A stretch of DNA of 64,000 bases, taken from assembly GCA_001931905.2 (NCBI GenBank), contig MSJI02000167.1, forward strand, positions 1 to 64,000, given 5' to 3'. Position 1 is the first letter of the stretch; each line of letters begins with the position of its first letter. This DNA comes from Cladosporium sp. IMV 00045. Lineage: Eukaryota > Ascomycota > Dothideomycetes > Cladosporiales > Cladosporiaceae. Positions 30,506 through 55,361 of the stretch are shown in pieces. The notes under the pieces were generated by a model. That model was not told the DNA's origin and searched no databases. It was given only the letters and a program-made list of their open reading frames with translations. Position numbers and translations under genes: made by a program.

Positions 30506-30574
30506 GAGTGGGATCACCTGTATCGTTTGAAAATAGCTACTCAATGCTCTGAAAGTCTCGTGTCATCAGACTAA
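30506..30574 (+). repeat. 69-bp imperfect repeat, right copy
   Basis: Partner of 29836-29904. It overlaps the last codons and the stop of the NLR gene on the minus strand. Confidence 0.75.
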
Positions 30575-33500
30575 ATCGATATCCGTCCCCATGGGAAACC
30601 ATCCATTGGGACCTCCTTCAAGATGCGTGCGGTCGATGTGCCCAGGATAGCTTCCCAGCTCCCGCGCCCTTTCCATCATTTTCGTTGATGAGACAGAAGA
30701 TCTTCCCTCGGCTTGCAAAAGGAGGTCAAGCACTTCTTTGTGATCTTTCATTGCGGCCAGATAAACGGCGACTTTGAAGAAAGAACCAGAAGGTTCCAGT
30801 GAGAAGAAATCGCGCAGGACCAACCCACGCCTTTTAATGTAGCTCTCGGCATTTGAAAGTATGTCAGTTGCCGGACTGGTCACCTTCAAGCACTCCCACA
30901 GCATCAACAAATGTTTGACTGCGTCAACGTGACCTACTTCTGCAGCCGCCTGCAGAAATCGTTGCACGTGGTCGTGAGTCTTGATGTCAGCTTCAAGTGC
31001 AAGTCGTCCGAGAAGTATCTGCGTTTTCTCGAGCTCTTTGGTCACGACAGCAAGTTCGGTCTCTATGCGATGGATTGTCGCCTTCGTAACGTGAATTGTA
31101 GTCTTTGCGAGATCTTTCAACCGACGTTTCCGCTGGTAACGCAGGATCTCGTGGTAGAAAGCAAGGTAATCCATGGGCAGCCAGCCTCTAGAGTCTTCCA
31201 CTACAGACAGCGTCTTTAGATGGAGAATACTGTCTGAAAGCACCTGAATGACATCTGGGTGGCGGTTCTTGCACGCAATGCAAAAACTTGTTTCGCCTTC
31301 CCAACCTCTGATGTGCATTTCCTTTTCCTCATCGAATTTTGGATTCTTCAAGATAAGCTTCGCCACCGCGGGAAAACCTGTAGCACTTGCGTGCCACAAA
31401 AGCGTCAGACCTTGATCGTCTTGATCGTTGGGGTGACCTTGCAGAATTGACTTGGCCACCCTGATGGCTAGTCGCCTCTCTGGAAGTAGCTGGCCAGGTA
31501 CAATAGGATTCTGCGGGCATTTCGTGCTCTCGTAAGGCTCGTTGTGCCCGAAGTTGTATACCAAAGAAACAAGAATATCCCAACGCTCTAAACGTAGGGC
31601 ATATTCAAATGGCGATAGGCCGCGATGATCGTTCACGGAGCTACTATCAGGGTCCTCGATGACCAAAAATCTGACGACTTCCTCTTGCCCGCTCCGTGTA
31701 GCCAAATGTAGCGGATTCGACCCGTCCTTGTCACGGGCGGAGGTTTGTCTTGGGGCTACCCGTGTCATCAATCGACAGCAATCCAAATGGCCAAACTCGG
31801 CCGCATAGTGCAGCGCATATCGTCCATGTTGCTGACACCTGGCATCCACATTACACGCGGGAAGCAATTCTACCAAAATGGCACTGTTGCCTTTCTTGCA
31901 GGCAACATGGAGTGCAGGTAGTTGCCCGTGATTTGCCAGTAGTCCATCGACGATGCGTTCGGGCAGTGCTTCTTGTTGACTCAGGACAAGTTTCAATAAA
32001 GGAACATGTCCGTACGCGACGCTGAATGCGAACATCTCAATGCGGTGCTGATTCGGTGTCAGTGCTGACCACGGATGAACCTTCCAGCTCTCATTTGGCT
32101 CCAGTGCTATTTCAGCGAACAGTTTCCAGTGATCTGCCGTACAAAACCTCTGAGCAATTTCTCGGTGACTTTCGATCCAATTGGCAGTCGCATATTGAAG
32201 AAAGCCCCCTTCTGCGGGTGCCGTGCGGCGTCGGGGGGAAGGAAACTTGGTTTTGGCAGTAGGAAGTCTTGCAGTACGGGTCAAAAGAAGATTGAGGGGC
32301 TTCTGCAGGCTCGAGGGAAGACTGAAAGCGGTTTTCGAGACCTCTAGTCGTGCAGCCTCTGTTGGAGCGACCAAGGCTCTCGTCGCTCTGCGTTTGATGT
32401 GGCGAAGACACAGGTGGCCAAGTGCCATTTTTACAGTCAGTTCACGTGCGTAAGTCGAAGGCATATCGAGGGATGGATCTAAATCTGGCATGTAATTGAT
32501 GCTCGGCATCGCAGCACGAGCACTGTCTGAAAAGATGAAGCTTCTGACTGAATCATGGATGGGAACAATGATCCGCTCAGTCAAGTCAAAAGTCACCAAT
32601 CCAACTCCCGAAAGCACAAGGTCCGCTGTGGAGATCAGAGCATCTTCCGTGTAATCGTAAGTGTCCTTGTCCAGCGCTAGCAGTTGCCTGAGGGCTTGCT
32701 CCTGCATCGGAGTGGGTGCGACGCATACCATGCAGAGCAGTTGAAAATCACACAGCGGCCCCCTCTCGCTGGTACGGCGTAAACAAGTCTGATACATCTC
32801 TTGCAGTCGACCCGGTAGGGCTGACAGAGATCTCATGACGTCCTTTGGTTTGGTGCAGTCGTTGAGTATGATGTAAAGGACAAGATGTACCCAAAGGAAC
32901 CTACTTGAGTCAGCTTTCAGAACCCTTGAGGCCTATCAGACTTTAGCGTATCTACTACTTACATTCCTTGGGCTCTCTTTTGTATCTCCTTTTTCACCCT
33001 ATTCCTCAAGGCTAAATCGAAGAACAATTGATCGTGGCCCGATTTGAGAGCTAATTGGGAGTCGATATAGACGTCGATGTCTTCTTTGTTCAGGTTGCCG
33101 TCGATAGGAACACGTCGAAATCCAGGTAAATGTCCATCGACATTGGTGCCGTCCTCGCTGCTAATCACAAGCCTCACATGCCGAAGGTCCAACATCTTTT
33201 TTAGGTACGTCCACAAGACCGCTTGTTCCGGCAGGTCGCAACAGTCAATGCCGTCAAGGACGATGATAACTCCTGAGAAAACTGCAAGAAGCGGGATCAA
33301 GATGTCTGCCACAAGTTCGTTAACTTCCGGCTGTCGGTTAGCTGCTCCAAAGTCTTCTTCAATCTGTTCACATATGTCATAAGGACATGGCTTGCCGATA
33401 TTGATCAAAGCTGCGAGTAGCTGCTTCACAAGACTGCGGAAGCAATTGATGCCTAGGCGGTCGGGGATTTGGTAGAAGTAGGCCAGAACGACATCAGTCG

Positions 33501-35270
33501 ATCTGTCAGGAAAAGCGCGCAGACTCTCTTCCAACAGTGTAGTCCTGTACCAGGAACAAATCAGTGCACTTGCGGCGCGGAGATTGGTGTTTGGGTCACT
33601 TACATCAGAGTGCTCTTGCCCGAACCGACTGCCGCATATTATGTCAGTCGTTTCCTTACTGCACGTCAAACAAATTCTTACCTTTTCCGGAAATCCACAG
33701 ACGAGGCTTGGAGTTGTCTGCGCTCAACCACTCTTGGATAGACACATTGGTGCGAAGCCATTCAGTTGTGCCTTCGCTCTTTCGGTTTGCCAACCGTCGG
33801 CAAACCTGTTTGGCGTCGTACGTGGAAATGCGGTCGAATATCGCAAAATCGACTTTGGCTGTATTGGAAAAGCGGTTAGTCAGACGCGCTGATCAACTTA
33901 GTCTCAAGTAAGAGCCAAGTTACAAACATTTGTCTCCCTTCGCCAAATGCCATCCTGAACTCTTTAACCAAGAAAGGAGGCGTTCTGAGTCTTGATTCGG
34001 GAATTTGACCAGGGATTTGGCTAAAAGGCAAGTCAGCCAACGAAACTCATGCAGAAGCAATCCGACTGGAAAGAATAGAGCGGTGTAGTTTGAGAGCTGA
34101 GAAAAACTCCAAGGGCTTGAATTGCATCATGGGCTATCTGTACATACTTTGTTGACTGGCCTCAGGAGCTGCCATAATCGGCTCGCCTAGCATCTTCGCG
34201 CACCTTCTGATTGCTTGAAACACGCTTTGCTCTTCCAGATACACATCGGTAAGTTCCTTGATCCTCGCAGCCTTCTCGACCTCTTCGAGACCAATTGCTG
34301 CAAGGCCTCTGGGGACGTTGAACCGGTAATATTTCATCTCGTCGTCAAGATCAGAGTGGGACCGATGGAACTCGGTTGCTGTGGTTTGTGTCTCGGTACT
34401 CATATCCAGCAAAGTCTTGCTGATGGCGAGATGGTCGTTTCCAAACTCTTTCAAGTCAGGCACGCCCGTGCCGATTGACACGATTGTGCAGATATTCTGG
34501 GCAAGCTTGAAACCAGAGCTATCGCAGAAAACATCTGACGCTTCGTTCCAGAGTTGCCGGATGGGATTGTTTGCTCCGGTCCCACCATCGAGGAACTCCT
34601 GTTTCAAAGGGCCTATTGCTATCGGATCGAAGAACGAAGACGCAGCAGAGGTGGCGCGGGCGGCCTCCCATATTCTAGTACTTTGGTACAGGTCTGGCGA
34701 TTCGCGAATCGGAGGGTAGCTTCTCAAAACAGATGACAGAGCCACTCCCTTGCTGGTAGCGCACACGAACCTGGAGCTTGTCAGCTTTTACGTAGGCGCA
34801 AGGATCGAAGTCGCTGACACTTTGCAAGCCTGAGGAGTGGCGTCCTTCAGCAGCGTATCTTTATCAAATCCCCTCTCCTGGATTACTCCTTGCACAGCAT
34901 TCTGCAGCTCCTCGCTGCTGTATCTGGCTTTGATTTTGCCTCTTATCGTCACAGGGCTGAAATGTTTTTGCTGAAATACTCTCTCTGAAAGCTTGATGTA
35001 TGCTTCGATGCATTCGTCCACCGACATGCGCAGTCGGCCGAGCATTATCGCAATGAGGCTGTCGACTGCTAAGTTTTGGCTCATATGCGACAGGTGCACT
35101 ACCACTTACCCGCCAGTGCTCGTGCCTCCAATCATGTCGAAGTAATCGCATGGCTTCGGTGGGTTCTCTGGATCTTTGGCGAGCATCAACCTTTGCAGCA
35201 CGTAGAGAGAAGACAACCCTCTCACGCCTCCTCCGTCAAGGCTCAAGAGGTTGAGCTTCTGATTCGACAT
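30566..35270 (-). CDS. Patatin-NACHT-ankyrin NLR protein, copy 1
   Basis: Eight exons: 35110-35270, 34819-35058, 34148-34770, 33928-34020, 33682-33858, 33604-33628, 32963-33544 and 30566-32900. They close in frame to 1411 residues. The N-terminal patatin domain has the oxyanion motif DGGGVRG (residues 12-18), the nucleophile motif GTSTG (Ser51) and the partner Asp in DGG (about Asp195), so the lipase centre looks intact. The NACHT domain has Walker A GSGKST (Lys436), encoded alone on a 25-nt exon, and Walker B IIVLDGID (about 533-540). AQGMFLW follows at the start of exon 8, then a winged-helix-like segment. Degenerate ankyrin-type repeats fill about residues 920-1390. Fungal NLRs with patatin domains act in programmed cell death and allorecognition (for example Neurospora PLP-1). 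The partner and trigger here are unknown. Confidence 0.9.
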
Positions 35271-36289
35271 CTCGTCCAGCCACCGCGAGTCGAGGATATG
35301 ACTAGATCATAGAGTACAGACAAACGACCAGTAGTGCAAGCTGGGGGCATTCACCGTCGCAAACAGTCTTCTTGTCAAGAAGTTGTCGTGAAAAGGTGCG
35401 TTCTTGCACGAAGTGTCAGCGCTGGATGTCCGCCGTAAGCCAGCCTTTCGGCCGGTGTGGGCGTTCTAGCCCTGTTACACCTCAGCTGAGCTACGTGCAT
35501 GAGAGTGGTATGCGTTGGAAGGACGTGAGCGAATGATGAACGCCACAGCGGCAAAGTACTTGAGGTCCAAATGTGCACAGCTCAGTACACATCAACAGTT
35601 GTACATCCCTCATACCATTGTGGTTGCGGAAGGCGCGCATGCGCTTGTGATGTTACGCATGGCGGCAGGGCACCATCATCTACCGGGAGGCGCTTTTCGG
35701 GATGACTCTTTGGAAATGCTGGAGGAGTACTCGGTCACAGTGAGATGAAGGATTGTTGGTACTCTGATGCGTTGAGTCGATGGTGTCTGTTTTCATTAAC
35801 CGCTTTAAGGGATAGCATCATCCCCGGCTCAAACATGGCCGAGATCGGCACACCATTGATGGATGCTGACCGAGGCGTTCGTGCGGGCTTGATGCCACCG
35901 AGTGAACCCTTCGTCCAGCGGTGTTACTGAAGTTTGCAGAATATCTGAGTTCCATACGCTCCTTCAATGTCTTCAAACTTTCAGAGTGATGGGATCTTCT
36001 CCGGCTCCTTGCTATGCGGGGAAGGCCCACCAGGGCAGGGCGCGCCAGGACATCTCACTGGATTAAATCGCCGTTGCACCGGAGTGTGTCATTCATGTGT
36101 GTGACATCGCGTCAGCTCTTTATCTTGAGGAAATTATTTCTTTGGCATTGCCGTCGTTCTTCGCTTGTCGTGTGTTGTCTGGAAACTTTGCGATCGTCAA
36201 CAGCGCTCAAATACGCCTCAGCCAAGCTCGTCGAGGTCGAAAGGCCCACTCCACCGTGCTAAGACGCCTGCCAACAGCGATCAAGCAAG
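35271..36289. promoter_or_regulatory. Divergent upstream region NLR/MFS transporter, copy 1
   Basis: This 1-kb region separates the NLR start from the MFS start and is conserved in copy 2. A frame of about 60 shared codons (35550-35748) is kept in both copies, but many of the base changes there alter residues; I do not call it a gene. Confidence 0.55.
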
Positions 36290-38197
36290 ATGGCCTGGGG
36301 ATTCGGGAAGAGCGAAAAGGAGTCGAGCTCTTCGACTGACAACAACGAGATCCGTTATGCTCAAAATTATCCCGGCGCAAACGACGAGGCTTTCGCTGGA
36401 GATCCCGCGTACCAGCAGGATATCGCGCAATGTCCGCCACACACGACGGAGCGCAAGCTGCTGGCGCGCATCGACTTGCACGTGATTCCGTTCCTCGTCT
36501 TGCTATACTGGTTGGCTTTCTTGGACAGGTTCGCGGGATCCTCTTCTCTGGAAATTGAAGACGAGAAGCTCACATATCTGCAGAGTGAACATTTCCAACG
36601 CCAATGTTTTCGGTCTGTCAGATGATCTCGGCCTTCAAGGTGTTGAATACAACACCGCCCTGGTGATCTTCTTTGTGCCTGTACGTACCTTTTCCTGTTG
36701 TTATGCAAGAGAAACGCTAACATCCTTATAGTACGTATGTTGTGTCGATAGGTCTTTGCACAGGCCAGTCCACGATGATCTTCTTCCACCAGCTAACAGT
36801 CTTAGGTTCTCTTCGAAATCCCGGCGAACATATTGATGAAGGTAGGCAGCATTGCTTCTCTGGAGCCCATGCATTCTTGCTGATTTTGATATAGAAATTC
36901 ACGCCTCACGTGTGGCTCTCTGCCAACATGGTTCTCTTCGGTTTCGTGACAATCATGCAAGGTCTCGTTAAAAACTATGCAGGATTACTCGCCACTCGTT
37001 TCTTCTTGGGCGTGTTCGGTAAGTCAAGTTCTCCCGTTTCTAGGCTTTCGATATCTCACTCTCATTCTACTCGAAGAGCATGGACCCCAGTCGTACTGAC
37101 CCTTTCATCTACAGAGGCGGGCATGTTTCCCGGATGCTTCTATCTTATCGGAATGTGGTACAAGAGACAGGAAGCTCAAAAGAGGTTCTCATTCTTCTTC
37201 TCTTCGACCACGCTTGCAGGAGGTTTCGGCGGACTCATTGCGGCTGGTATTGGCGAAATGGACGGTATGCGAGGGTATGAAAACTGGAGATGGGTGAGTA
37301 CCAGTTCTCGTCTTCGTGACAAACTATTTTACTGATTTTGAGCTCTAGTTGTTCATCATTGAAGGTGGATTTACGGTCGCTTGCTCTGCGCTCGTCTTTT
37401 TCTTCCTCTCCGATTTCCCAGAAGAAGCCAAATGGTTGAAACCGTCAGAGAAAGAGTTCGTCTCTGCGCGTCTGCGCGTTGATGTAGGCGAATCAGCACG
37501 ACACCACAAGACAACCGCGAAGGGCATATTCAAGATCCTCAGCGAGTTCAGAGTCTTGATTGCTGGTGTCATGTACTTTGGTCTCATCGTACCTGCGTAC
37601 AGCTACGCGTACTTCGCACCTACGATCATCAGGGGCTTCGGATACTCACCGATTCAGACACAACTGCATTCTGTCCCACCATGGGCGGCAGCCTTTGGTT
37701 GGTCGATGATTACGGCTACATTTTCGGACATGAGTCGCCATCGTTTCGCATTTATCATCGGAGGAGTTTGCATTGCCATCGCCGCCTTCGGAATACTCAT
37801 CTCTATCCAAGACAACACCGAGGTCCAATATGCAGCTCTGTTCCTGGTGGCGATGGGATGCTACAGCACAATGCCATTTATGGTTTGCTGGTTCAACATG
37901 AACATAGGCGGCCACGTGAGGAGATCCGTCTGCTCTGCGTGGCAGGTCTCCTTCGGCAACATTGGCGGCATCATCGCGGTTTTCGCTTTCTTCCCGTCCG
38001 ATGCGCCAGGTTACCGCACCGGTTATAGCATTTGCATTGCATTCGCCGTTCTTGCGATGATTGCGTCGATACTTTATGGCATATCTTGCATTAGGGAGAA
38101 CAAGAAGCGAGACAGGATGCCCACCGATTTGAACCTGTCGGAGGCACAGAAGGCGGAGTTGGGAGACTTGAGTCCCGAGTATAGATACCTGTTGTAA
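36290..38197 (+). CDS. MFS permease (Tna1/allantoate permease-like), copy 1, with a 3-nt microexon
   Basis: Exons 36290-36528, 36584-36680, 36732-36734, 36806-36841, 36895-37018, 37115-37293 and 37349-38197 give 508 residues. Signatures of the anion:cation symporter family appear in order: YWLAFLDRVNISNANVFGL, VPYVLFEIPANILMK, RFFLGVFEAGMFPGCFYL and NWRWLFIIEGG, with about twelve membrane helices. The Tyr of PYVLFEIP is encoded by an exon of only three bases flanked by two complete introns, each with a GCTAAC branch site. Leaving it out would delete a residue that the family keeps. Relatives import nicotinate, allantoate or similar acids; the substrate is unknown. It is divergent from the NLR gene. 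Copy 2 differs by about 2% of residues and has the same exon plan. Confidence 0.88.
36732..36734 (+). other. Three-nucleotide microexon (TAC, Tyr)
   Basis: It lies between CTTATAG| and |GTATGT. The left intron (36681-36731) and right intron (36735-36805) each have a branch site GCTAAC and their own acceptor. The same layout is present at 56821-56823. Confidence 0.75.
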
Positions 38198-38827
38198 GGT
38201 GTAGGTAGAAGACACGAAAGTCCCAAGGGCCTTTACAAATAGCTATCGATTAGTAAATAATTGAATGGCCACGCCATAACATTCGAGATGCCTTCGTTGA
38301 ATCAGCACGTGCAAATGTCGAATTGATGGAATACATATGTAGCTGTTATCGGAATCGGTGCGACAACACAAATCACATTTCGCCGTATGAAACGATGTTG
38401 GAAGGGAGCCGCTCTTCGTGAAGGTTGTTGTTCAGTGAAATGCCGAGCCAGCCAATCCAGTCGCAAGGCATAGAGCGGCGTTTCTTCGGTACATGAGCTT
38501 TTGAAGCCTGAGGCACTAAGGCAAGACAAGCGCCAAGGCTTGAAGCACTCCGCGAGAATTCGACGAATTCGACGTCTCCAATTGCAGCCAGTTCTCTCGA
38601 GGCCGACGACGAAACGACCCTCACGACGACCCTTCGACACATCGCAATACCGGTGAGTCTCCCCATATCGACACCTTCAGCACAATTCGCATCTCTGGCA
38701 AATTCTTCGTCGAGACCGAACATCGCACTCCACCCGCACTACGACCCCGAAATTTCGCACCACTTCGCGCCACCATCCGACGAAAACTTCCCAAGGACTT
38801 CAATACTGACGATACTGGATAGCAAAC
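38198..38827. other. Region between MFS gene and RPS23, copy 1
   Basis: The 3' flank of the MFS gene up to about 38280, then a stretch of about 160 bp that aligns poorly with copy 2, then the conserved RPS23 promoter and leader. A GGTGAGT donor near 38651-38657 may start an intron in the 5' untranslated region. Confidence 0.45.
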
Positions 38828-39056
38828 ATGGGTAAAGGACAGCCGAGAGGTCTTTTGGCCGCGCGCAAGCTCCGCGACACTCGTCGTGAGAACCAGTGGG
38901 CCGATCTTCACTACAAGAAGAGACTGTTGGGCACGGCCTTCAAGTCTTCCCCCTTCGGTGTACGTACAACCTGGACACCCCGACGACGCCACGGCGATGA
39001 ATGAAGAGGAGGCGGATATGATGGAAATGGCTGTGGCGATGAAGGGAATTGGGACT
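38828..39056 (+). CDS. RPS23: Ribosomal protein uS12 (Rps23), copy 1, truncated by gap
   Basis: Exon 1 (38828-38959) encodes 44 residues, [20 protein letters not shown]... to [14 protein letters not shown], the standard start of eukaryotic Rps23. The following intron begins GTACGT at 38960 and runs into the N gap at 39057, so the rest of the gene is not present. The equivalent complete gene is at 58953-59578. The gap is a break of the contig; there is no sign of a biological truncation. Confidence 0.9.
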
Positions 39057-39076
39057 NNNNNNNNNNNNNNNNNNNN
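39057..39076. other. Assembly gap (20 N)
   Basis: Twenty unresolved bases join the first intron of RPS23 to the middle of the CRZ1 coding sequence, a junction without biological sense. Confidence 0.98.
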
Positions 39077-39218
39077 TCCCACCTCACCGACCCGAGCTTC
39101 ACCCAAGACATCCACCAGCACCAGCCCGACTACTCGCTCGGCCACTTCAACAGCTCTTTCAAAGACCAGCAGCAGGTGCCCATCGTGCCTTCCCAAAACA
39201 CCGACGTGTCAAACCATA
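39077..39218 (+). repeat. 142-bp exact repeat, right copy (contig-end overlap inside CRZ1)
   Basis: It is identical to 23453-23594 and begins directly after the gap. The CRZ1 frame continues beyond it. Confidence 0.95.
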
Positions 39219-41331: not shown

Positions 41332-42979
41332 CGATCATGACAACAAAACATTCGATGACGAGTCGCTTTTGTTGAGAAGGGCTCGTGCGTCTTTTAACGA
41401 CTTCTACTTCTGGGAGGCCGCGGCCTTTGATGTGCTGCTTGGGCCATGATTTTTATCTTCTTCTTTCCATCCTGCTTTTGCTTTTCTTGGAGACGGACTT
41501 TATCTGCCTTCTTTTTTACTTTGCAATTATTCGATACCACTGCTTGCTTACCTGCTATACGACGCGAATGCGATGAGGCACAGGCATAGAGGAGTTTATC
41601 TCTTGCTTTTTATGTTTGTTGAGGGAGCGAGGGGAAAGCGTTTTGGATACCATACCTCCCTCCCTCCCTCACACTTTCTTGAAGATTTCGTTCTTGAATT
41701 GCCGGATTTGGCCACACATTTTTTCTTGTTTCTTTTGAGATACCACCTTCGCTATGACGAGTGCAAATGAAAGCGAATATATGATTCGCATATCCACGAT
41801 TCGCAGGATCGCAATATACGTGTCACTGATTTGCTGTACCGTTTCGATCAACTTCGCAAACGAATTCTCACGTCTAAATACCTCTCTCAGAATGGCAGCC
41901 ACGGCGTCGAGCTAGTGTTTTCACTGCAGCTGTGCCCTCACAAGACTTTTTCTTGACGCAAAGTCAGAGAGGCGGTTTCGGAAAGATGGACTTTTGTCGG
42001 CTTCCGATCCACACCGTTGATGATAGTGATAGATATCCAATACTATATTTCCTCGCCTCTCCAAAGCTTCCTACTTTGATTCTCCGTTTCGCTCTTCCAC
42101 GCTTTGTTTGCTTTTTTCTCATTTGCATGGACTCGCAGGGTAAGGTATGTGATGTATTTGCTACAACATTCACCGTGGATATGGGCAAGGAGAAGTTTCA
42201 ATCGGAGAAGTCAACGTCTCATTTCGACTTCCTTGTACATGTATTTGTCAGGCCTGTTAATAGAGAGAAGGATGGGAGGAGATCACCGGCTACCTTGCAG
42301 TTGTGATTTTGCTTTTTCCTTTCTTTTTGCTTTTGCGTGTCTTCCGCTGGAGGTTGAATAGTTCTTCCAGTCGGACCCTGGAGTTTGGGGAAATACCTTA
42401 AGCGGTTGGAAGGTGTGTTGGGTCGATAGTTCGAGGCATCTGAATCGGTGTTCGACCTTGCTGTGTTTTGGAAGAGATGCGATGTAGAGCGAAAAGGGAA
42501 TGCTTTAGTGAGCATGATCGAGGGAAAAAGGAAAAAAGGTGCTGCGATTGGTGGCGCTGGAGAGCATGTAACGGTTGCGTTGAGGCTTTTGGATGGTGCG
42601 TGAAGGGAATGTGGGTGAAAGAGGAAGTATGGAAACTGTATAGTAAGGTAGTATGTCTGGTGTTTTGCCTTGGAGTTATGACAATAAGGCCTGGCAAAGA
42701 TGCGTAAATCCGACTTCCTGCCGTGTGCGTTTCATCCTGTCATGAGATCTATCGTGAGGTTTGTATCTATGTTGTGTATATGCTCGTTATCCCGGAAAGG
42801 AGATCCAATAATAGAAACAGGAAACGAAAACCATTCAGTCCGAAAAAAACGCCCGTCCGATATGCTGGGAGAACAACGTCAGCGACTTTACAGATCCACG
42901 AGTGCCAGAGAGGAAGAAGAATCTCTCACCATTTAACCCCCCAAGCCCAGTAAGGAAACAGAAAAGGAAAGCCAACTTC
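41332..42979. other. 3' flank of CRZ1, no gene recognised
   Basis: About 1.65 kb, rich in T and A, with polypyrimidine runs (CCTCCCTCCCTCCCTC near 41656). No reading frame on either strand resembles a family, and no RNA gene was recognised. Confidence 0.5.
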
Positions 42980-45279: not shown

Positions 45280-45785
45280 ATGAAGTTCGCTCTCCTCACG
45301 ATCCTGCTAGGCCTCTGCGCCAGCATCCTTGCCTTCCCTGCAGATCTCGATTCCATGACCGAATTGAAGAGAGATGCCGAAGCAGAAGCCGAATCCTCCG
45401 CCGCAGCGAACCAATGCACCCTCACGAAGCTCAAGCAAATCTTGACTGACTACAGTAAGTAGACCACCAAGAGCCCCTCCAGCATGACGGCGCGAATGTA
45501 GCTCCCCACCCACTAACACTCCCCCTCCTTCTCCCCCCAGGCATGAAAGAATTCCAATCCGCCCGCAACGCCAACAACGGCAAAGGCAACCCAACCTGTT
45601 TCATCTGGAGTTCCGACAACTGCAGCAACAGCCCCGACCGTCCGGCGGCGTTCAATTTCATCCCGCCTTGCCAGCGTCACGATTTCGGGAGCCGCAACTA
45701 TAAGAAGAAGAACCAGTGGAATCCCGTCAGTAAGCTGCGAACCGACACGCAGTTTTTGAAGGATATAAGGTGTGTTGGGATCTGA
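45280..45785 (+). pseudogene. Secreted phospholipase A2, copy 2, frameshifted near the C-terminus
   Basis: Exons 45280-45454 and 45541-45785 read 139 residues. The signal peptide, Lys-Arg site and catalytic CQRHDFGSRNY segment are all kept. Compared with copy 1, four bases are missing between 45766 and 45767 (after GGATAT). The frame is shifted and ends after a few foreign residues. The downstream DNA up to about 45885 still resembles the copy 1 coding end (WNKLKIPAC.. to QDLKE), so the deletion is recent. Two C-terminal cysteines are lost, and the product may not fold. A sequencing or assembly error in this copy is an alternative explanation. Confidence 0.8.
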
Positions 45786-46170
45786 AGGGTTGGAACAAAT
45801 TGAAGATCCCGGCGTGTTTGATTGTCGCGCAGAAGTATTTCGAGGCGGTTGTGGTGTTGAATCCGCCGCAGGATTTGAAGGAGTAGGCTGTTGAAAGTGG
45901 GCTTGTTGGATGGTCAAGGCTGCGGTGGTGGTTGTTTGGTTGGCGGGTGGGTGTTGCTGTCGATGTTATTGATCTTTTCGCTTGGTCGATTCGGGTATTC
46001 ATGATTAACGATTTTTCTGTTTGCATTTCTCGAAATCACCTAGGCAGTGATCGTATCAGTCTCCCGATGCTAAGAGTCGTCTAATCCATTAGAAGGAAAC
46101 CATTCGTCTCAGGATGGTCATTCGAAAAGTCACAGCAAAACTCGCGTGAACGATCAATCCGAGGAGCTTT

Positions 46171-46908
46171 CTACGCATCTCTGACTCTCGTGTCAAGCGC
46201 AAGTCGATCCGGGACGCGCAGGTCGATAACGCCTTCCACGTTCTTCTTGAAGCTCTCCAATTCTGCAATGGCCTGGCTTGCAATCGCCGTGTTCTTCCTG
46301 TCCGCCATGCGGACAGACACTTCGACCAGATACGTCCCACTTGCATCCAGAACTTGCAGCTCGGTTATGCTCAGCGGTGGTCCGTCGAGTACCTTATCGA
46401 CAGGCAATTGCTGCTGCGTCAAAAGCACACGGAAGATACGGACGACGACATTTCCTTTCACGAACCTGTGGCCGAGAATGTAGTGCTGACCAACATATCT
46501 GTAGGCACTTGCGTCCTTGTATTCCTTCGTGTCCAGGAGATCCTTTTCAGTAACCTCCCTGGCAATGTGATCTTTGATACTCGGATCCGGGGTCTGCTCG
46601 ACTCGCTGTCGCCACGATTCGGTAGCTTCAGGCGTTACATCTGCAGTGATCTGCACCGAGCGAGTGAGCTTGTGCATCCACTTTTGCTGCTGTTGTTGCA
46701 GATTGCCGGGTTGTGGAGTTCCAGTTTGGGCTTTCTTTTTCGAAGCGGCGATTTCCGGGGTGCGGAGTTGGGCGAAGAGCGCGTTCTGGTCTTGGTAGGC
46801 GAAGGGTTGCGATCCCGTGACTCCGGCTAGGACGTTGAGGACTTGATTGTGCCGGGATGGAGATATTTGGCTAAAGAGGAGGATTTCGTGCATTTTTGTG
46901 GTGTCCAT
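46171..46908 (-). CDS. MED18: Mediator complex subunit 18, copy 2
   Basis: A single exon of 245 residues, the same length as copy 1. It has identical N-terminal (MDTTKMHEILLF) and C-terminal ends and about seven substitutions, mostly conservative (for example Ile/Val, Asn/Asp). The Gln run near residue 71 has the same length. There is no sign of relaxed constraint, so both copies look functional. The divergent position relative to KGD4 is the same as in copy 1. Confidence 0.88.
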   Translation of the reverse strand: MDTTKMHEILLFSQISPSRHNQVLNVLAGVTGSQPFAYQDQNALFAQLRTPEIAASKKKAQTGTPQPGNLQQQQQKWMHKLTRSVQITADVTPEATESWRQRVEQTPDPSIKDHIAREVTEKDLLDTKEYKDASAYRYVGQHYILGHRFVKGNVVVRIFRVLLTQQQLPVDKVLDGPPLSITELQVLDASGTYLVEVSVRMADRKNTAIASQAIAELESFKKNVEGVIDLRVPDRLALDTRVRDA

Positions 46909-47491
46909 CTTTGTCGTTCAGTCCTATGGATTTCTTCCAGGTGCGTACGCGATAGTGTTGCTGCTGTGGGGTGCTCAAGAGAAGCCGGCTATCATGCCCT
47001 ACGACGACCACATGCACTTCGTCACGTCCTGCAGAGGTGAGAAATATCAGATGGTGTTGTCTTGACCTAGTCGAGCATGTGAACGCGGGACTCGTAGACA
47101 TTGACTGGGGATTTCTGGGGTGACCGTTCTGCGAGCGCGGGTTGGTGAAGTGAAGTTCGCCTGTTCAGTCAAGTCCAGCCGACTCCGAAAAGCCTCCCGA
47201 AGCCGGAAGCTGGCGAACACCGCGCTTGCCTGCTTGCTTGCTATCACCGCGAAGAGTAATCCAATTGACTTTCCTTTGACCTGTACGCCCTGTCCGCCTC
47301 TGTCTCTCTATACCTCACGCACCTGGAGTCATATACCAGACCTTCTCGACAGGCTACCGTCCACCTTTCAGCCTCTTCAATCCAAACACTCCTTCCCACG
47401 CGCGCGCCGCGAATCTTCCCGGTCAAACGGCTCTTCCAACCACCACGACTACTACCACCAACACCAACATCTTCACACCCCGCTAGCCAAT
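46909..47491. promoter_or_regulatory. Divergent promoter region MED18/KGD4, copy 2
   Basis: Strongly similar to 26793-27376. A long open frame (47120-47932) passes through it into KGD4, but only the part from the Met at 47492 is family-like. Confidence 0.55.
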
Positions 47492-47932
47492 ATGCGCGCC
47501 ACCAGAGTACTCTTCAAGCACACTCCTTTGATCAAGTTCATTGGTCGCCGCTCAATCCCCAAGCGTCAGGCTCCCTCTAGAAATCCTCAAATCACAGCCC
47601 GATCTAACCTTCCAACCACAGAAATCGACCACACTCCCCAAGTCCACCCCGCCTCCCCCGCCGAATCCCTCCCCGAGTCCTTCGCCCAATACCGCCAGAA
47701 AGCCAGCCAGCATGGTCCGATGATGCGCAGCAGCGGCAGCGGCGCCGGCAGCAGCGCCGCGCCGCAAGCCTACGGCCTCGTGGGCGGCCGTTCGGGACGC
47801 CAGATGGGAAGCGTGAACCCGAAGGAGGGCGAATTCTGGGACCGCAACGAGCTGCCGAAGAGGTTCAGACGGACGGTCTACAGCGACGCCGAGATGGAGG
47901 CTATCGAGAGCGGCGGTGCGAGCTTGTTCTAA
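47492..47932 (+). CDS. KGD4: Kgd4/MRPS36-like subunit of alpha-ketoglutarate dehydrogenase, copy 2
   Basis: Exons 47492-47564 and 47622-47932 join to 127 residues, with the same mitochondrial-type N-terminus and ELPKRFRR motif as copy 1. The intron is 57 nt, a multiple of three, contains no in-frame stop and has the weaker donor GTCAGG. Failure to splice would therefore yield a protein with 19 extra residues instead of a truncated one. In copy 1 the intron is 68 nt with a GTAAGA donor. A short Gly/Ser indel (SGSGAGSS) distinguishes the two proteins. Confidence 0.85.
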   Translation: MRATRVLFKHTPLIKFIGRRSIPKRQAPSRNPQITARSNLPTTEIDHTPQVHPASPAESLPESFAQYRQKASQHGPMMRSSGSGAGSSAAPQAYGLVGGRSGRQMGSVNPKEGEFWDRNELPKRFRRTVYSDAEMEAIESGGASLF

Positions 47933-49012
47933 ACGTGCTTGAGCGCTGGGAAGGGAGAAGGGATGATTTATTGAGGAGGCCTGAATGGCAAGGAAAGGGA
48001 AGGCATTTGTTTGTTTCTGTTCGATTTTGTAAAGCTCATGAGCCATGGCTAGCTATAGAGAGCGAGGTATACCCAAATCTTGCAACTTTTGTACATCATC
48101 TTGCATGGACTGCGCTTCTCGGGATATCTTGCAGGTTGAGCTGTCTCTGCGGCGATCAATAAGGGAAACGGCAGTGTATATTCCGATTTGATGGCAACAA
48201 TCGGAAAGCCAATGGCTGGACTGGTGGATGCCCAAGTTCTTGGGCCCGTGGTAACTCTCTGGAAGCAGTTGCGATACCTATTGAATTGCGCTGCTCCTCA
48301 CCATATCTTGGAGATACTCTGTATCACAACCAACAAATTTCAAGACCAGAAAAGCATCCCTTCGTCTGACAATCCTCAATCTCAAACCAATTGCAATCGA
48401 ATCATACCTCATCTTCCACCTGAAGATGAACCGTGCTTCACAGGGATCGCATAACCGATAGTAGACCCTGCGCCAGTGCCTTACGCAATGGTTGATTCTG
48501 CGTTCAAGTAAATCTAGCTCTTGTGACTAGTAATACACCAAGTACAACAGTTACCAGGATAGAGATCGCAAAAAGTGAAGCTCGGCCAAGTCTTTCGGGA
48601 TAAATTAATAGCCAGCACCACAAAGGTAAATCACGCCTTGCCGTACGGACCGCAACGGCCCCAGCCTTCAGACGAGAAAGAAAGACCCCGCCCGAGAGCT
48701 CTCCTAGCAACAGTATCAGCTCCTCCAATGGATTGATGGATGCTTCTCCACGCACCCTGCTTTCTTGCGATGATCGCGAACGCAAGCTGGCGCCGTGGCG
48801 TCTTCAAGCGAGACCGCACCTGCTTCGCTCATTCTCACTTTCTCACTTAGCCGGTGACCGCTTCTCCTCTCATCAATTCCTCTCCTGTAAAACATCTGTT
48901 TGCACATACAAGAGGCGAAGCAACAGTGCCTTAAGCTGTGCATTCTTGCGCCTTTGAAATCATTACTTCTCCCTCCCGGACTTAGCGATTCATTGAGTGC
49001 ATATCCGAGAGC
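47933..49012. other. Intergenic region KGD4-peroxiredoxin, copy 2
   Basis: Aligns with 27826-28930 with many small indels. No gene is recognised. Confidence 0.5.
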
Positions 49013-49906
49013 ATGGTCGAGCTACGCAAACGTCCCGCTCCCCCTCCAGCTCCTCCGCCAGCCAAAAAGAAAGCCGCTCCGAAAAGCAAGGCTAAGAAAG
49101 ACGAGCCCGTAGCTGAAGAGCCTGCTGCTACTGCTGGTGCCGATGCGGCCGCTGAAGACGCTGCCAAAGATGTGATCGCCGAGACCGCAGCGAAGAGCTC
49201 TTCAAGTCCGGCGTCGCCACCCAAGCAAGGCGACAAAATCGAGCTCGGAGGCTTCGGTGGCGAAATTGAGACGAACGATGGGCAGAAAGTCACCCTTGCC
49301 CAGCTCGTGCAGAGTAGTAAGAAGGGTGTGGTTTTGTTCACGTATCCGAAGGCGAGCACGCCGTAAGTCCTCAGTTACATGAATTTCTCAAAAGTATTAG
49401 GAAAGCAGAAAGTGCTAACAAAAGGCTATCACAGTGGCTGCACCACCCAAGTCTGCCTCTTCCGGGACTCCTACGCGCCCCTAACCGCCACCGGCCTCGC
49501 AATCTACGGCCTCAGCACCGACAGCCCCAAAGCCAACACCACCTTCAAAACGAAGCAGAACCTCCCCTACCCTCTCCTCTGCGACCCGAGCGCCGGCCTC
49601 ATCCAAGCCATCGGGTTCAAGAAAGTGCCCAAAGGCACCCAGAGAGGAGTGTTCGTCGTCGACAAGGAAGGTAAAGTTCTGGCTGTCGAGGCGGGCGGTC
49701 CGGCCGCGACTGTGGAGGTTGTTAAGGGGATTGTGGAGGCTGAGGGTGGGAGTGAGGTTGATGGCGGGTTGGAGAAGGCGGAGGAGAGGGCGGTGGAGGG
49801 TGAGGGGGAGGAGGCTGAGAATCATAGGATTGCTGATACTGCGGCGGAGGTGGCGGATGTGGCGAAGGGGTTGGATGGGACGCCATTGGTTGGGACGCCT
49901 GCTTGA
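49013..49906 (+). CDS. DOT5: Dot5-like nuclear peroxiredoxin (PrxQ/BCP type), copy 2
   Basis: Exons 49013-49362 and 49435-49906 join to 273 residues. The domain order is as in copy 1: a basic Pro/Lys/Ala N-terminus, a peroxidase fold with Cys119 and Cys124 in GCTTQVC, and an acidic tail. It differs from copy 1 at about ten positions and by loss of the final Arg. Exon-intron structure is identical, with a 72-nt intron. Both copies look functional. Confidence 0.88.
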
Positions 49907-50647
49907 TGAGAAGAGATGGTCGGGATTGACCGCCTTTCGCTCTACGGTAAAAGGTAGTTTTCCGTACGTCTATGGAAGTTAACAATCTTGCTGCAACAGT
50001 CACGGACCTTGGTATGGGTAATTTTCATCGTTCTAAATTTCCCCATACCAACAGGCTTACCCATAAGCCACCCATGTTGCTCAGCTCTGTATCAAAAAGG
50101 ATTGAGAGTAGATGGGGGTTTCAAGATTCTCTTGATCTGGAACTAATCGCTTACCCTCAAGATTTAGACGCTACTGGACGACCCGTTCTTTTGATAGACA
50201 AATGTACTACGCGAGGAGCTTAGAAAAAGAAAAAAGGAGGGGAGACAAACACCATCGACTTAAAAATCAGACGAAGTTATTTGTATCGCTTTCTATACAT
50301 TAGAGTGTAAAGAAACAAATAGCTAAACTGTTCATACAAAGAAATGCTTACTCAGATCTTTAGGATTCTATTTAGATGGATAATATCTAAGACATTATGT
50401 ATTGTTACCTAACAGTTCACGACACAAGAGAAACATTCATTTATGAATCTTGCTCCTACACATATGTAGGCAAAGCCATCTGCTGAAGCGGAGAAATACT
50501 CTACGAGAAAGGAACAGAGTCAGTCGTGAATTACTCCGAAAGTTTATTCGTGAATCATTATTCCGACGTGGGAGCCTTTTCGATTTCTTCACTCCCAAAG
50601 TGGTGGAAGTTGATAACATGCGGTCAGGTCAACCGTAACGTCTGCCA
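49907..50647. other. AT-rich spacer between peroxiredoxin and NLR, copy 2, unlike copy 1
   Basis: The 741 bp do not align with the equivalent spacer of copy 1, which carries the MITE-like element. A long imperfect hairpin lies at about 50014-50052 (GGTATGGGTAATTT / AAATTTCCCCATACC). No coding frame is recognised. It may itself be a transposon remnant. Confidence 0.5.
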
Positions 50648-53600
50648 TTACTTTACTATCAGCACATGCGTCTCTTGTGAAAACCAACCACCAACGCCGC
50701 TTGTAATACTAAACACGCCAAGGTGCCCTGGATAGCTTCTCAATTGACGCGCAGTCTCCATGAGTCTGATTGATGATGAAGGGTCTTCGGATTGTAACAG
50801 GAGCTGAAGCACTTCTTTGTGCTGCTTCATCGCAGCCAAGTAAATGGCCACAGGGAACGTCGAATCAGCAATTCCTAACGACGAGAAATCCATTCGGCTG
50901 AGTCCGCGCTTCCGAAGGTACCTGTAGGTATCAGCAAGTAGAGGTGTGCGAGGCGGCCGATTCACTTTCCCGTTCTCCCATTGTAAAAGCAAGTGTCTGA
51001 CTGCATCAACGTGATTCACCTCTGAAGCTGCTTGCAAGAAGCTTTCCAAATCACGGAAATCATTGAGGTCGGCTGCAAATGCAAGGTGCCCGAGCATTGA
51101 CTTCAAGTTTTGAAGCTCGCTGGGAATATCATTGGGGACAGTGACCACCAATTGCGGACTCGCAGATGGGCGCTTATCCCTTTGGGTCGGAATATGGCTA
51201 GATAGGAACCCATCTTCTTCAACGAGACGCAGAGCCTCATGGTGCAAGGCAAGAGATTCGATTGGCAGCCAGCCGAGCCAGTCGCGAATCACAGAAAGTG
51301 CCATTAGTTTGGTATTCAAGAAGACCTGAACGACGTCCAATTGACGATTTTCGCACGCAATGCCAAGAGCCGTTTGACCTTTGGAATTCCTGGTATGCAT
51401 TTCCTTTTCCTCATCGAATGCCGGGTGCATCAGGAGATGCTGGGCTACTCTAGCGAACCCGGTAGCACTCGCGTGCCACAAAAGCGTCAACCCATTTTCA
51501 TCTCGATCGTTAGGATGACCTTGCAGACGTAAGGCAGCAGCCTTGATTGCTAGTCGCTCCGCTGATCTTGGATGATCTGACATAGATAATGCTTGGTTTG
51601 CTGCGTCTTCAGTGTCGATTGGTGGCTCATTTGGTTCAATGGCGCCTATCAAAATGTCAAGCAGATGCCAATGGCCTAAGTTCAAGGCAGAAGTCAGGAG
51701 TGATTCGCGGGAAATGCGCGTCATGGAGCGACCGGTGTTGTCGTCTCGAAGTAAAAATTCAACAACGTCTTGATGCCCGTTCTGCGTGGCCAAATGGAGG
51801 GGAGTCAGATTGTTCATGTCATGGGCAGAAATTAGCTGTGGTTTCGCCTGCGCCATAATATGACAGCAATTCAGATGGCCAAACTCGGCCGCATAGTGCA
51901 ATGCGCATCGTCCGTGTTGCTGACACCTGGAAACCACGTGGCATACGGATAACAACTCTATCAAAACGGCGCTGTGGCCTTTCTTGCAGGCAACATGGAG
52001 TGCAGGTAGTTGCCCGTGATTTGCCAGTAGTCCATCGACGATACGTTCGGACAGTGCTTTCTGTTGACTCAGGAAAAGTTTCAGTAACGGAACATGTCCG
52101 TACGCGACACTGAACGCGAACATCTCAATTCGGTGCTGATTTGGTGTTTGCGCCGACCACGGATGAACATTCCAGCTTTCATTTTGTTCCAGTGCTATTG
52201 CAGCGAAAAGTCTCCAGTAGTCTTGCGTGCAATACGCCTGAGTAAGTTTTCTGTTGCACTCAATCCAATTATCGGTTGCATATTGGAGAAAGCCCCCTTC
52301 TGCGGGTGCCATGCGGCGTGGGGAGGAGTGAAATCTAGCTTTGGCAGTTGGAAGCCTTGAAGTACGGGGGAACAGAAGATTGAGGGGCCTCTGCAGACTG
52401 GAAGGAAGACTGAAGGCGGTCGTCGAGACATCTAGTCGCACGGGATCTGCTGGAGCAACCACGGTTCTCGTCGCTCTGCATTTGATGTGTCGAAGGCACA
52501 GGTAGCCAAGTGCGTTCTTTGCGTTCAGTTCACGTGCATGGGTCGAAGACATGCCCGGCATGATGGACGGATCCGAATATGGCATATGATTGATTTTCGG
52601 GTTCACAGAAAAAGCACTGTCTGAAAAGATGAAGCTTCTGACCGAATCATGGATGGGAACAACGATCCGGTCAGTCAAGTCAAAAGTCACCAATCCAACT
52701 CCCGAAAGCACAAGGTCCTCTGTGGAGATCAGAGCATCTTCCGTGTAATCGTATGTGTCCTTGTCCAGCGCTAGCAATTGTCTGAGGGCTTGCTCCTGCA
52801 TTGGAGTGGGTGCGACGCATACCATACAGAGTAGTAGAAAGTCACACAGAGGCCCCCTCTCGCTGGCACGGAGTAGACAAGTCTTATACATCTCTTCCAG
52901 TTGACCCGGAAGGGCTGACAGAGATCTCATGACGTCCTTTGGTTTGGTGCAGTCGTTGAGTATGATGTGGAGGACAAGGTGTACCCAAAGGAACCTATTT
53001 GTGTCAGCTTTCAAAACCCTTAGGGCATATCAGGGTTTAGCGGAATTACTACTTACATTCCTTGGGCTCTCTTTTGTATCTCCTTTTTGACTCTACCTCT
53101 CAAAGCTGAATCGAAGAACAGTTGATCATGGCCCGATTTGAGAGCTAATTGCGTGTCGATATAGATGTCAATGTCTTCTTTGTTCAAGTTGCTGTCGATA
53201 GGAACGCGCCGAAATCCAGGTAGATGTCCATCGACATTGGTGTCGTCCTGGCTGCTGATCACTAGTCTCACGCGTCGAAGGTCAAATATTTTTTGGAGGT
53301 ATCTCCACAAGATCCCTTGTTCTGCAGGTTCGCAACAGTCGACTCCGTCAATGATCATGATGACCTCTGGAAAAGTAGCAAGAAGCGGAATCAGTATGTC
53401 TGCGACAAGTTCATTAATTTCCGGCTGTCGATTTGATGCTCCGAAATCTTCCTCAATCTGTTCGCATGTGCCCCGAGGACATGGCTTGCCGACATTGATC
53501 AAGGCGGCGAGTAGCTGCTTCACAAGACTGCGGAAGCAATCTATGGCTAAGCGGTCCGGTAATTGATAGAAGTAGGCCAGAACGACAGAAGTCGATCTGT

Positions 53601-55361
53601 CAGGAAAAGCGCGCAGACTCTCTTCGACCAATGTAGTCCTGTACCAGGAGCAAATTAGTGCGCTTGCGGCGAGGAGATTGGTTTTTGGGGTTACTCACAT
53701 CAGAGTGCTCTTACCCGAACCGACTGCCGAACATTGTGTTAGTCGTTGGCTTACTGCACGTCAGATGAATTCTTACCTTTTCCGGAAATCGACAAACGAG
53801 GCTTGGAATTGTCTGCACTCAGCCAGTCTTGAATAGACACATTGGTGCGAAGCCACTCAGTTGTGCCTTCGCTCTTTCGGTTTGCCAACCGTCGGCAAAC
53901 TCGTTTGGCATCGTACGTTGAAATACGGTCGAATATCGCAAGATCGACTTTGGCTGTGTTAAAAACACGGTTAGTCAGACGCATTGACATATTTAGTCTC
54001 AAGAAAGAGTCGTATTACATTTGTCATCCTTCACCAAATGCCATCCTGAACTCTTCATCCAAGAAAGAAGGCGTTCTGAGTCTCGGTTTGGAAATTTTAC
54101 CAGTGATTTGGCTAAAAGGCAAGTCAGCCAACGAGACTCATGCAGAAGCAAAACCGATTGGAAGTATAACACTGGTTTCAATTGGGACCCTACGAGACCT
54201 TTGAGGGAGTGGATTGTATCATGAGTTATCTGTACATACTTTGTTGACTGGCCTCAGGAGCTGCCATAATCGGCTCGCCTAGCATCTTCGCGCACCTCCT
54301 GATGGCCTGGAATATGCTTTGCTCTTCCAAATACACATCGGTAAGTTCCTTGATCCTCGCAGCCTTCTCGGCCTCTTCGAGACCAATTGATGCCAGGCCT
54401 CTGGCGACGTTGAACCGGTAGTATCTCATTTGATCGTCAAGGTCGGAGTGAGAACGATGAAATTCAGCTGCTGTGGTCTCTGTCTCGGTACTCATATCCA
54501 GTAAAGTCTTGCCGATGGCGAGAGGGTCGTCTCCAAACTCTTTCAGGTCGGGCACGCCGGTGCCGATTGACACGATTGTGCAGATATTCTGGGCAAGCTT
54601 CACACCAGAGCTATCGCAGAAGACGTCTGAAGCTTCGTTCCAGAGTTGCCGAATGGGATTGTTAGCTCCGGTCCCACCGTCGATAAACTCCTGTTTCAAA
54701 GGGCCTATGGCTATCGGATCGAAGAACGAAGACGCGGCAGAGGTAGCGCGGGCAGCCTCCCATATCCTCGTTGTTTGGTAGAGTTCCAGCGATTCGCGGA
54801 CCGGAGGATAGCTTTTGAGAATGGACGGAAGAGCCACTCCCTTGCTGGTGGCACATACGAAACTGGAGCCTGTCAGCTTGATATAGTAGCAGGGTATGAA
54901 GTCGCAGACACTTTGCAAGCTTGGGGGGTGGTGTCCTTCAGCAGCGCATCTTTGTCGAGTCCCCTCTCCTGTATTACTTCTTGCACAGCATTCTGCAGCT
55001 CCTCGCTACTGTACCTGGCTTTCATTTTGCCTTTAATCGTCACAGGGCTGACATGCTTTTGCTGAAATACTCTCTCTGAAAGCTTGATGTATGCTTCGAT
55101 GCATTCTTCCACCGACATGCGCAGTCGGCCGAGCATGATCGCAATGAGGCTATCGTGGATTCAGTCTGAGATCAGACGCGAAAGATGCCCTACCACTTAC
55201 CCGCCAGTGCTTGTGCCTCCAATCATGTCGAAGTAATCGCATGGTTTCGGTGGGTTCTCTGGATCTTTCGCGAGCATCAACCTTTGCAGCACGTAGAGAG
55301 AAGACAGCCCTCTCACGCCTCCTCCGTCAAGGCTCAAGAGGTTGAGCTTCTGATTCGACAT
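50648..55361 (-). CDS. Patatin-NACHT-ankyrin NLR protein, copy 2
   Basis: Eight exons: 55201-55361, 54910-55149, 54240-54862, 54019-54111, 53777-53953, 53699-53723, 53057-53638 and 50648-52994. They close in frame to 1415 residues. The first seven exon lengths equal those of copy 1 exactly; only the last exon differs, by 12 nt. Patatin motifs DGGGVRG, GTSTG and DGG, Walker A GSGKST and a Walker B-like IMIIDGVD are present. Divergence from copy 1 is about 11-13% of residues in the patatin and NACHT parts. It rises through exon 8, where the last 400 residues (ankyrin-type repeats) agree at only roughly half of the positions while keeping repeat-like motifs such as [12 protein letters not shown] and [12 protein letters not shown]. 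No frame damage is seen. Confidence 0.9.

What the first reader, a model, noticed from the sequence alone, without database searches (positions are those of the whole stretch)
30566..55361. Hypervariable NLR between two otherwise conserved haplotype blocks: candidate allorecognition or immunity locus
Between the copies, MED18, peroxiredoxin and MFS proteins agree at about 97-98%. The patatin and NACHT parts of the NLR agree at about 87-89%, and the C-terminal ankyrin part at roughly half of positions. Both copies remain fully open over more than 1,400 codons with the same first seven exon lengths, so the divergence is not decay. Sharp, domain-limited divergence in the sensor end of an NLR is what diversifying or balancing selection at a recognition gene would produce. 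Fungal patatin-NLRs are already known to trigger cell death in allorecognition. This pair may be an undescribed incompatibility locus.
Basis: partly seen in the sequence, partly recalled or inferred. Interest (0 to 1): 0.88.

Follow-up and report, generated by a model that had tools for sequence, protein, structure and literature searches.

The report
Fungal immune receptor, two ancient tails
A fungus carries two versions of one immune-type receptor gene that are alike except for the sensing tail, and one of those tails is closer to a tail found in another database sequence than to its own partner, which suggests that old alternative sensors are being kept by selection.

Summary
The window has two copies of one patatin-NACHT-ankyrin NLR (1411 and 1415 aa, both open), about 92/86% identical in the patatin/NACHT parts and 46-47% in the C-terminal tail. 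They are almost certainly not side by side in nature: gaps, a 142-bp exact overlap and a transposon broken across two contigs show that block 23,615-39,056 is the second haplotype, inserted by the scaffolder. The divergence is a step at residue ~1007, and silent sites jump too (dS 0.36 to 1.27; dN/dS 0.20 to 0.36). So the tails are much older than the rest of the gene; there is no dN/dS peak. The tree changes there as well: in the tail copy 1 groups with P0242, an unnamed database protein, excluding copy 2 (AU p=0.0009); upstream the two copies group together (95/93; the alternative is not rejected, p=0.07). This fits old sensor types kept by balancing selection, as at known fungal het genes. 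Allorecognition is unproven: both alleles in one isolate argue against a simple allelic killer pair, and an immunity receptor fits at least as well.

The parts
1..23594 (.). contig A: phase-switched mosaic of the two haplotypes, matching C42 up to ~10 kb and C619 after it
   Evidence: at 1681 sites where C619 and C42 differ A equals C619 (1222) or C42 (459), and 3 further sites are unique to A
23595..23614 (.). scaffold gap (20 N)
23615..39056 (.). contig B: the second haplotype (continues C42 through a transposon), wrongly scaffolded between A and C
   Evidence: A's last 142 bp equal C's first 142 bp at 100%; C42 ends and B begins inside an element with matching inverted ends at the homologous site 44702-44716
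23615..24575 (.). right part of a multicopy transposon-like element, absent from the other haplotype
   Evidence: 34 matches in the genome, counting itself and one match of the flank; inverted ends read at C42 end and B start
30566..35270 (-). NLR copy 1 (1411 aa): patatin - NPHP3_N/NACHT-type NTPase - ankyrin repeats; 8 exons
   Evidence: motifs GTSTG, DGG and P-loop present
30569..31783 (-). divergent C-terminal tail of copy 1, residues 1007-1411; groups with P0242
   Evidence: breakpoint residue 1007; AU tests
29845..30565 (.). 3' intergenic stretch of copy 1, not alignable to the other haplotype; holds a ~600-bp low-copy repeat flanked by 69-bp direct repeats at 84%
39057..39076 (.). scaffold gap (20 N)
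50648..55361 (-). NLR copy 2 (1415 aa), same architecture and exon pattern
50651..51871 (-). divergent C-terminal tail of copy 2, residues 1009-1415
26055..26801 (-). MED18, haplotype B (flank, conserved)
   Evidence: Pfam Med18 E 3.9e-29; 97.6% to the other copy
46171..46917 (-). MED18, haplotype C
   Evidence: Pfam Med18 E 5.2e-30
49367..49906 (+). peroxiredoxin 3' ORF, haplotype C; the sharp edge of the divergent tract lies just beyond it
   Evidence: AhpC-TSA; 93.9% to copy B; alignment ends at 29844/49926
57461..58309 (+). MFS transporter exon, haplotype C (other flank)
   Evidence: MFS_1; 97.9% to copy B; dS 0.248, dN 0.009

Best explanation
One recognition locus, one copy per haplotype, in a heterozygous (probably hybrid diploid, or heterokaryotic) Cladosporium-like fungus carries two old, structurally equivalent forms of a patatin-NACHT-ankyrin NLR. 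Shown: same place and flanks in both haplotypes; both copies open with their motifs; the old difference is confined to the ankyrin tail and 3' region; the copy 1 tail groups with a tail from another source to the exclusion of copy 2. Inferred: the tail is the sensor that binds a ligand or guarded protein, the NACHT-type domain then oligomerises, and the patatin lipase damages membranes and kills or arrests the cell. Also inferred: two tail specificities have been kept for a long time by balancing (rare-advantage or changing-ligand) selection, while recombination homogenised the effector and NTPase parts and the flanking genes.
For: Step at residue ~1007 in three measures: synonymous, nonsynonymous and grouping of sites. 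Four-fold site differences 0.16-0.23 before and 0.49-0.61 after. Exon-8 N part: NLR1-NLR2 78%, P0242 62/64%; C part: NLR1-P0242 66%, NLR1-NLR2 46%, NLR2-P0242 47%. C-part tree NLR1+P0242 support 100/99; NLR1+NLR2 rejected, AU p 0.0009 with 9 rows and 0.0017 with 4 rows. Flank baseline: dS 0.11-0.51 in 7 genes of C619 vs C42 and 0.11-0.25 in 3 genes of B vs C. No third copy or donor tail found in the 49.9-Mb assembly. Tail under constraint: omega 0.36, hydrophobic positions 58% identical (87 of 151) vs polar 35% (70 of 198). Both tails are predicted with a closely similar ankyrin-type helix order. Footprint of about 2 kb resembles het loci in A. fumigatus (PMC11138114, Results section read).
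Against: P0242 has no name or genomic context here: it may be a paralog, not an allele, and its being another species is inferred from its distance only. In the N part the alternative grouping NLR1+P0242 is not rejected (AU p 0.07 with 9 rows, 0.19 with 4 rows). Only two alleles of the window's own species are known. dS in the tail is near saturation, so age is only 'much older', not measured. Copy 1's own exon 8 is not among the 120 listed hits, where copy 2's is (P0241).
Confidence: 0.6

Rival explanations
1. Allorecognition (heterokaryon incompatibility) locus: the two tail types trigger cell death when hyphae of unlike type fuse.
For: Patatin-NLRs (PLP-1) and NACHT-ankyrin genes are tied to incompatibility in other fungi (PMC12881547 passages; PMC11138114 Results and passages); narrow footprint and a tail shared with another source, as at those loci.
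Against: Both alleles, each open, occur in one isolate, so they are not plainly lethal together unless the culture is mixed or expression differs. No second divergent stretch in the 176 windows compared, and no SNARE among the 30 of 60 listed ORFs scanned. [quoted passage not shown]
Confidence: 0.25
2. Gene conversion or unequal crossing-over with a paralogous NLR (now lost, or absent from this strain) replaced one tail; no selection for two types is needed.
For: Sharp edges on both sides; 69-bp direct repeat and low-copy repeat at the 3' edge of copy 1; NLR1-P0242 tail path (0.54) is shorter than their N-part path (0.76).
Against: No donor found in this genome: the best other tail match is C752, 38% over a short piece. 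Both tails remain homologous in frame along nearly their whole length, with a similar helix order.
Confidence: 0.25
3. Ordinary interspecies divergence in a fast-evolving domain: the strain is a hybrid and the tail simply evolves faster.
For: Haplotypes differ by about 6% (median window identity 0.944 in C42-C619); the tail does evolve somewhat faster (P0243: 49% in N part, 38-40% in C part).
Against: Silent sites jump with the replacement sites, and the grouping changes at the same point. Faster protein evolution explains neither.
Confidence: 0.08
4. Assembly chimera: the tail of one copy was joined by mistake.
For: The scaffold does hold errors (B misplaced, A phase-switched). Copy 2's exon 8 is listed in the protein collection (P0241, 2 contigs), copy 1's is not among the 120 listed.
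Against: No N run inside either gene; each tail was found once in the assembly, so no alternative source sequence was seen; both are open in frame.
Confidence: 0.05

Closest known systems
[not shown]
   Same: PLP-1 has an N-terminal patatin lipase, a STAND NTPase and C-terminal repeats (PMC12881547 passages)
   Different: PLP-1 has NB-ARC and TPR repeats and acts with SEC-9; here a NACHT-type NTPase (NPHP3_N) and ankyrin repeats, with no SNARE found in the ORFs scanned
hetC (patatin-like) and hetE (NACHT + ankyrin candidate) of Aspergillus fumigatus
   Same: trans-species alleles; for hetA-hetD the footprint ends within some hundred bases of the coding sequence (PMC11138114 Results)
   Different: there the divergent stretch covers the gene; here it covers about the last 29% of the protein plus the 3' region. 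hetC has a patatin domain without the other NLR parts and no hetE gene was validated
het-d/het-e (HNWD) of Podospora anserina and other NLRs with highly conserved repeats
   Same: variation sits in the C-terminal repeat sensor (PMC4986451 passages)
   Different: those change by exchange among near-identical repeats; no such repeats here
C752 paralog in the same genome
   Same: patatin-NACHT-ankyrin gene
   Different: one place only; 62% in patatin, 37% and 29% in the two parts of exon 8

Membership tests
fungal NLR (STAND receptor) | N-terminal effector domain, nucleotide-binding domain, C-terminal superstructure repeats | tested here: met
   copy 1: Patatin E 6.4e-25, NPHP3_N E 1.8e-20, Ank_2 E 2.8e-35; copy 2 alike; P-loop present
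fungal NLR (STAND receptor) | lipase dyad motifs kept in the patatin domain | tested here: met
   DGGGVRG, GTSTG, DGG in both copies (motif meaning recalled)
[not shown]
   NPHP3_N/NACHT and ankyrin
[not shown]
   none among 30 of 60 listed ORFs of 150 aa or more scanned with Pfam; spliced genes were not modelled
het gene under long-term balancing selection | narrow divergent tract with neutral flanks | tested here: met
   8 of 176 windows under 70%, all contiguous
het gene under long-term balancing selection | alleles shared across species | tested here: inconclusive
   tail grouping with P0242 significant, but its species and locus are unknown
het gene under long-term balancing selection | even allele frequencies in populations | not testable with these tools
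   no isolates of this species at hand
het gene under long-term balancing selection | incompatibility phenotype when alleles meet | not testable with these tools
   both alleles in one assembly speak against strong lethality
NLR with highly conserved repeats (HNWD-like) | near-identical tandem repeats in the sensor | tested here: not met
   TRF at score 30 finds only short periods of 6-12 nt

The most novel reading that the evidence does not exclude
A receptor whose sensor tail behaves as an exchangeable cassette: two or more ankyrin tails older than the species split are kept by balancing selection, while the killing and switch domains are homogenised by recombination that stops inside the ankyrin array (residue ~1007). 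Here both types live together in one hybrid without killing it.
Probability: 0.3. Interest if true: 0.72.

Novelty: new member of a known kind. Interest (0 to 1): 0.52.

Why it matters
If confirmed, it adds a patatin-NACHT-ankyrin locus from a Cladosporium-like fungus to the fungal recognition genes with old shared alleles. It also gives a sharp intragenic boundary between sensor and effector. And it poses a direct test: can two old receptor types that should differ in what they detect live in one nucleus or cytoplasm, as they seem to do here?

Tried and rejected
Tandem duplication of a 20-kb segment: rejected, since gaps, the 142-bp overlap and the split transposon show two haplotypes scaffolded in series.

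Three haplotypes (A, C42, C619): rejected, since A is a two-part mosaic of the other two.

Diversifying selection read as omega above 1: not seen; highest 100-codon window 0.52 at residues 701-798, outside the tail. Pairwise NG86 only; no site model was run.

Tandem or concerted repeats in the ankyrin array: none.

Whole-genome doubling as the simple reading: not clear. Rpb5 C-terminal domain and MAT alpha box were each found once, and 59190-64000 has one copy, so heterozygosity is partial or redundant contigs were filtered. The MAT1-2 idiomorph was not searched.

Close full-length homologs: none found. The search with copy 1 (words from its first 500 residues, 7989 candidates scored, 120 of 1136 listed) gave 37% over 74% of the query for its top hit; higher identities there cover the patatin part only. 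P0242 (771 aa) falls below that search's length limit.

Naming the species: failed. The nearest named amidohydrolase is Cladosporium fusiforme, 81%; an unnamed one is 93%. Rachicladosporium/Cryoendolithus was only a guess from genome size and paper passages.

Grouping of NLR2 with P0243 in the tail, first suspected by eye and entered in a note: not supported (held together it is 9.3 log units worse, AU p 0.065).

Rows dropped: five mechanical ORFs were computed but left out of the flank baseline. Four had no Pfam match, one of these antisense to MED18; the fifth (49485-49982 +) overlaps the peroxiredoxin ORF in another frame and was not scanned. One further entry gave no row because it holds stops.
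Full report
WHAT IS THERE. The window is the start of contig C165 of a 49.87-Mb, 954-contig assembly with no name. Two 20-N gaps divide it into A (1-23594), B (23615-39056) and C (39077-64000). The last 142 bp of A equal the first 142 bp of C exactly, so A runs on into C and B was put between them by the scaffolder. B aligns to C in two strong pieces, 24575-29844 to 44702-49926 (90.0%) and 31139-39056 to 51227-59181 (87.2%), with a weak one (64%) over the tail between them.

TWO HAPLOTYPES. Contig C42 (29,528 bp) is collinear with A and with the start of C, at 93.7% and 88%. It ends inside an element whose end (GGTCGGCCATA) matches, inverted, the end of the element with which B begins. The two halves meet at the same target site in C, with what reads by eye as a short TTTAG repeat. 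The element's right part gives 34 matches in the genome, counting itself and one match of the flank. So B continues C42, and A-right plus C continue C619. A itself switches phase near 10 kb: where C619 and C42 differ it equals C42 at 459 sites (457 of them before 10 kb) and C619 at 1222; 3 further sites are unique to A. The stretch 59190-64000 has only one copy, and Rpb5 and the MAT alpha box are each found once. The isolate is therefore partly heterozygous, or its assembly was filtered. Diploid, heterokaryon and mixed culture cannot be told apart here. The nearest named relative of one flank gene is Cladosporium fusiforme at 81%. In another black fungus highly heterozygous hybrid diploids are known (Hortaea werneckii, PMC7325687, passages).

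THE GENE. Each haplotype has one open gene of 8 exons: 1411 aa at 30566-35270 and 1415 aa at 50648-55361, both on the minus strand. Exons were set by hand from the sequence; there are no transcripts. Domains are patatin, NPHP3_N (NACHT-type NTPase) and ankyrin repeats. Patatin and P-loop motifs are present in both. AlphaFold models of exon 8 (mean pLDDT 78.9 and 75.9, with 79 and 104 residues under 50) show a closely similar order of helices in both copies: a helical part, an ankyrin stack, a helix pair (shorter in copy 2) and a second helical stack. The 50 PDB matches listed for the copy 1 model are ankyrin-repeat or DARPin structures, so far as their titles and my knowledge of them tell, though with low TM-scores over the whole model (0.17-0.28). 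The genome searches found no further close copy; the nearest is a paralog on C752, 67% over 1 kb of DNA.

THE DIVERGENCE. Patatin: 0.918 aa identity, dS 0.335, dN 0.040. NACHT: 0.857, 0.429, 0.075. Residues 1031-1412: 0.470, 1.306, 0.449. Split at residue 1007: dS 0.361 to 1.272, dN 0.072 to 0.454, omega 0.20 to 0.36. Four-fold sites differ at 0.16-0.23 in the four segments before and 0.61 and 0.49 in the two after. Best breakpoints: residue 978 (synonymous; 969-1018) and 1010 (nonsynonymous; 1006-1010), each reached by 0 of 200 shuffles. Flank baseline: in seven genes, some over part of their length, C619 vs C42 has dS 0.109-0.508 and dN 0.006-0.058; in three genes B vs C has dS 0.112-0.248 and dN 0.009-0.031 (five mechanical ORFs were left out, see Tried and rejected). 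So the patatin and NACHT parts lie within the flank range in dS, and the tail lies far above it. The tract also takes in the 3' intergenic stretch and stops sharply at the end of the peroxiredoxin ORF (29844/49926). Of 176 windows of 250 columns, 8 are under 70%, all in this tract.

WHAT THIS MEANS. There is one, but silent sites rise with it, so the two tails have been apart far longer than the rest of the gene and its flanks. A test with other sequences agrees. The exon-8 search of both copies gave 189 proteins among 7991 scored candidates (120 listed). P0242 and P0243, from an unnamed source coded 'lgn', are the nearest apart from the window's own P0241, which is copy 2; copy 1's own exon 8 is not among those listed. 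In residues 635-1006 NLR1 and NLR2 are 78% identical and P0242 is 62/64% to them. In residues 1007-1411 NLR1-P0242 is 66%, NLR1-NLR2 46% and NLR2-P0242 47%. Of 305 sites informative among the three, the best break is at residue 1007, with a gain of 46.5 log units; 0 of 1000 shuffles reach it. Trees of nine rows: N part NLR1+NLR2 at 95/93, with NLR1+P0242 not rejected (AU p 0.0695); C part NLR1+P0242 at 100/99, with NLR1+NLR2 rejected (AU p 0.0009). Four-row tests: N part p 0.19 for NLR1+P0242 (not rejected); C part p 0.0017 against NLR1+NLR2; the two halves of the tail alone give p 0.0016 and 0.048. So the tail grouping is well supported. In the N part the case rests on distances more than on the AU test.

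HOW IT MOST LIKELY WORKS (inference). The ankyrin tail senses a ligand or a guarded protein, the NTPase oligomerises, and the patatin lipase acts on membranes. The patatin-NLR PLP-1 of Neurospora triggers death on meeting an unlike SEC-9, and needs its patatin domain and ATP-binding motif to do so (PMC12881547, passages). The architecture here differs: NACHT-type NTPase and ankyrin instead of NB-ARC and TPR. In Sordariales patatin NLRs are almost all NB-ARC (146, 95%; PMC12258605, passages), but patatin-NACHT-ankyrin proteins occur in other fungi, so the architecture is not new. Old shared alleles with a footprint of some hundred bases are documented for het genes of Aspergillus fumigatus, among them a patatin-like gene; a NACHT-ankyrin candidate there is also shared across species (PMC11138114, Results section read).

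ALLORECOGNITION OR IMMUNITY. For allorecognition: the kinship and the footprint. Against a simple allelic pair: both alleles are open in one isolate, and no other divergent stretch was seen in the windows compared. [quoted passage not shown] I put allorecognition at about 0.25. The wider statement, old sensor types kept at a recognition NLR, I put at 0.6. The main rival is a tail swap with a lost paralog. No donor was found in this genome, but copy 1's 3' edge does bear a 69-bp direct repeat and a low-copy repeat. P0242's locus and species are unknown.

NOVELTY. A new member of a known kind. Paper searches made; their listings (3 to 15 papers each) name no such locus in titles or abstract starts, and I claim no more than that.

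Noticed in passing
23453-23594 and 39077-39218: 142 bp exactly repeated on either side of the misplaced contig B: a scaffolding error that makes two haplotypes look like a tandem duplication.
   Followed up: yes
window 1-23594: Contig A switches from one haplotype to the other near 10 kb, so even this single contig is a chimera of two real haplotypes.
   Followed up: yes
23615-24575: Right part of a multicopy element with inverted ends, present in one haplotype only; 34 matches in the genome, counting itself and one match of the flank.
   Followed up: partly
29836-29904 and 30506-30574: 69-bp direct repeat (84%) flanking a ~600-bp low-copy repeat (3 other weaker matches in the genome) at the 3' end of NLR copy 1; by eye, GGCTTTGCATACTT recurs inverted at its ends.
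   Followed up: partly
59190-64000: Single copy in the assembly, directly after a stretch where the haplotypes reach 99.6% identity: homozygous or filtered.
   Followed up: partly
50651-52930 (P0241): The protein collection lists copy 2's exon 8 (2 contigs, source not shown), while copy 1's exon 8 is not among the 120 hits listed: another data set of this fungus may hold only one tail type.
   Followed up: no
G000 C517:19972-20126 and C220:35811-35964: Two 5.8S rRNA genes with clearly unlike scores (165.8 and 144.3 bits): second lineage, pseudogene or foreign sequence.
   Followed up: no
G000 C752:27900-32900 (L046): Diverged patatin-NACHT-ankyrin paralog found at one place only, unlike the window's gene.
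   Followed up: partly
17829-17934: tRNA gene longer than usual (106 bp), probably with an intron.
   Followed up: no
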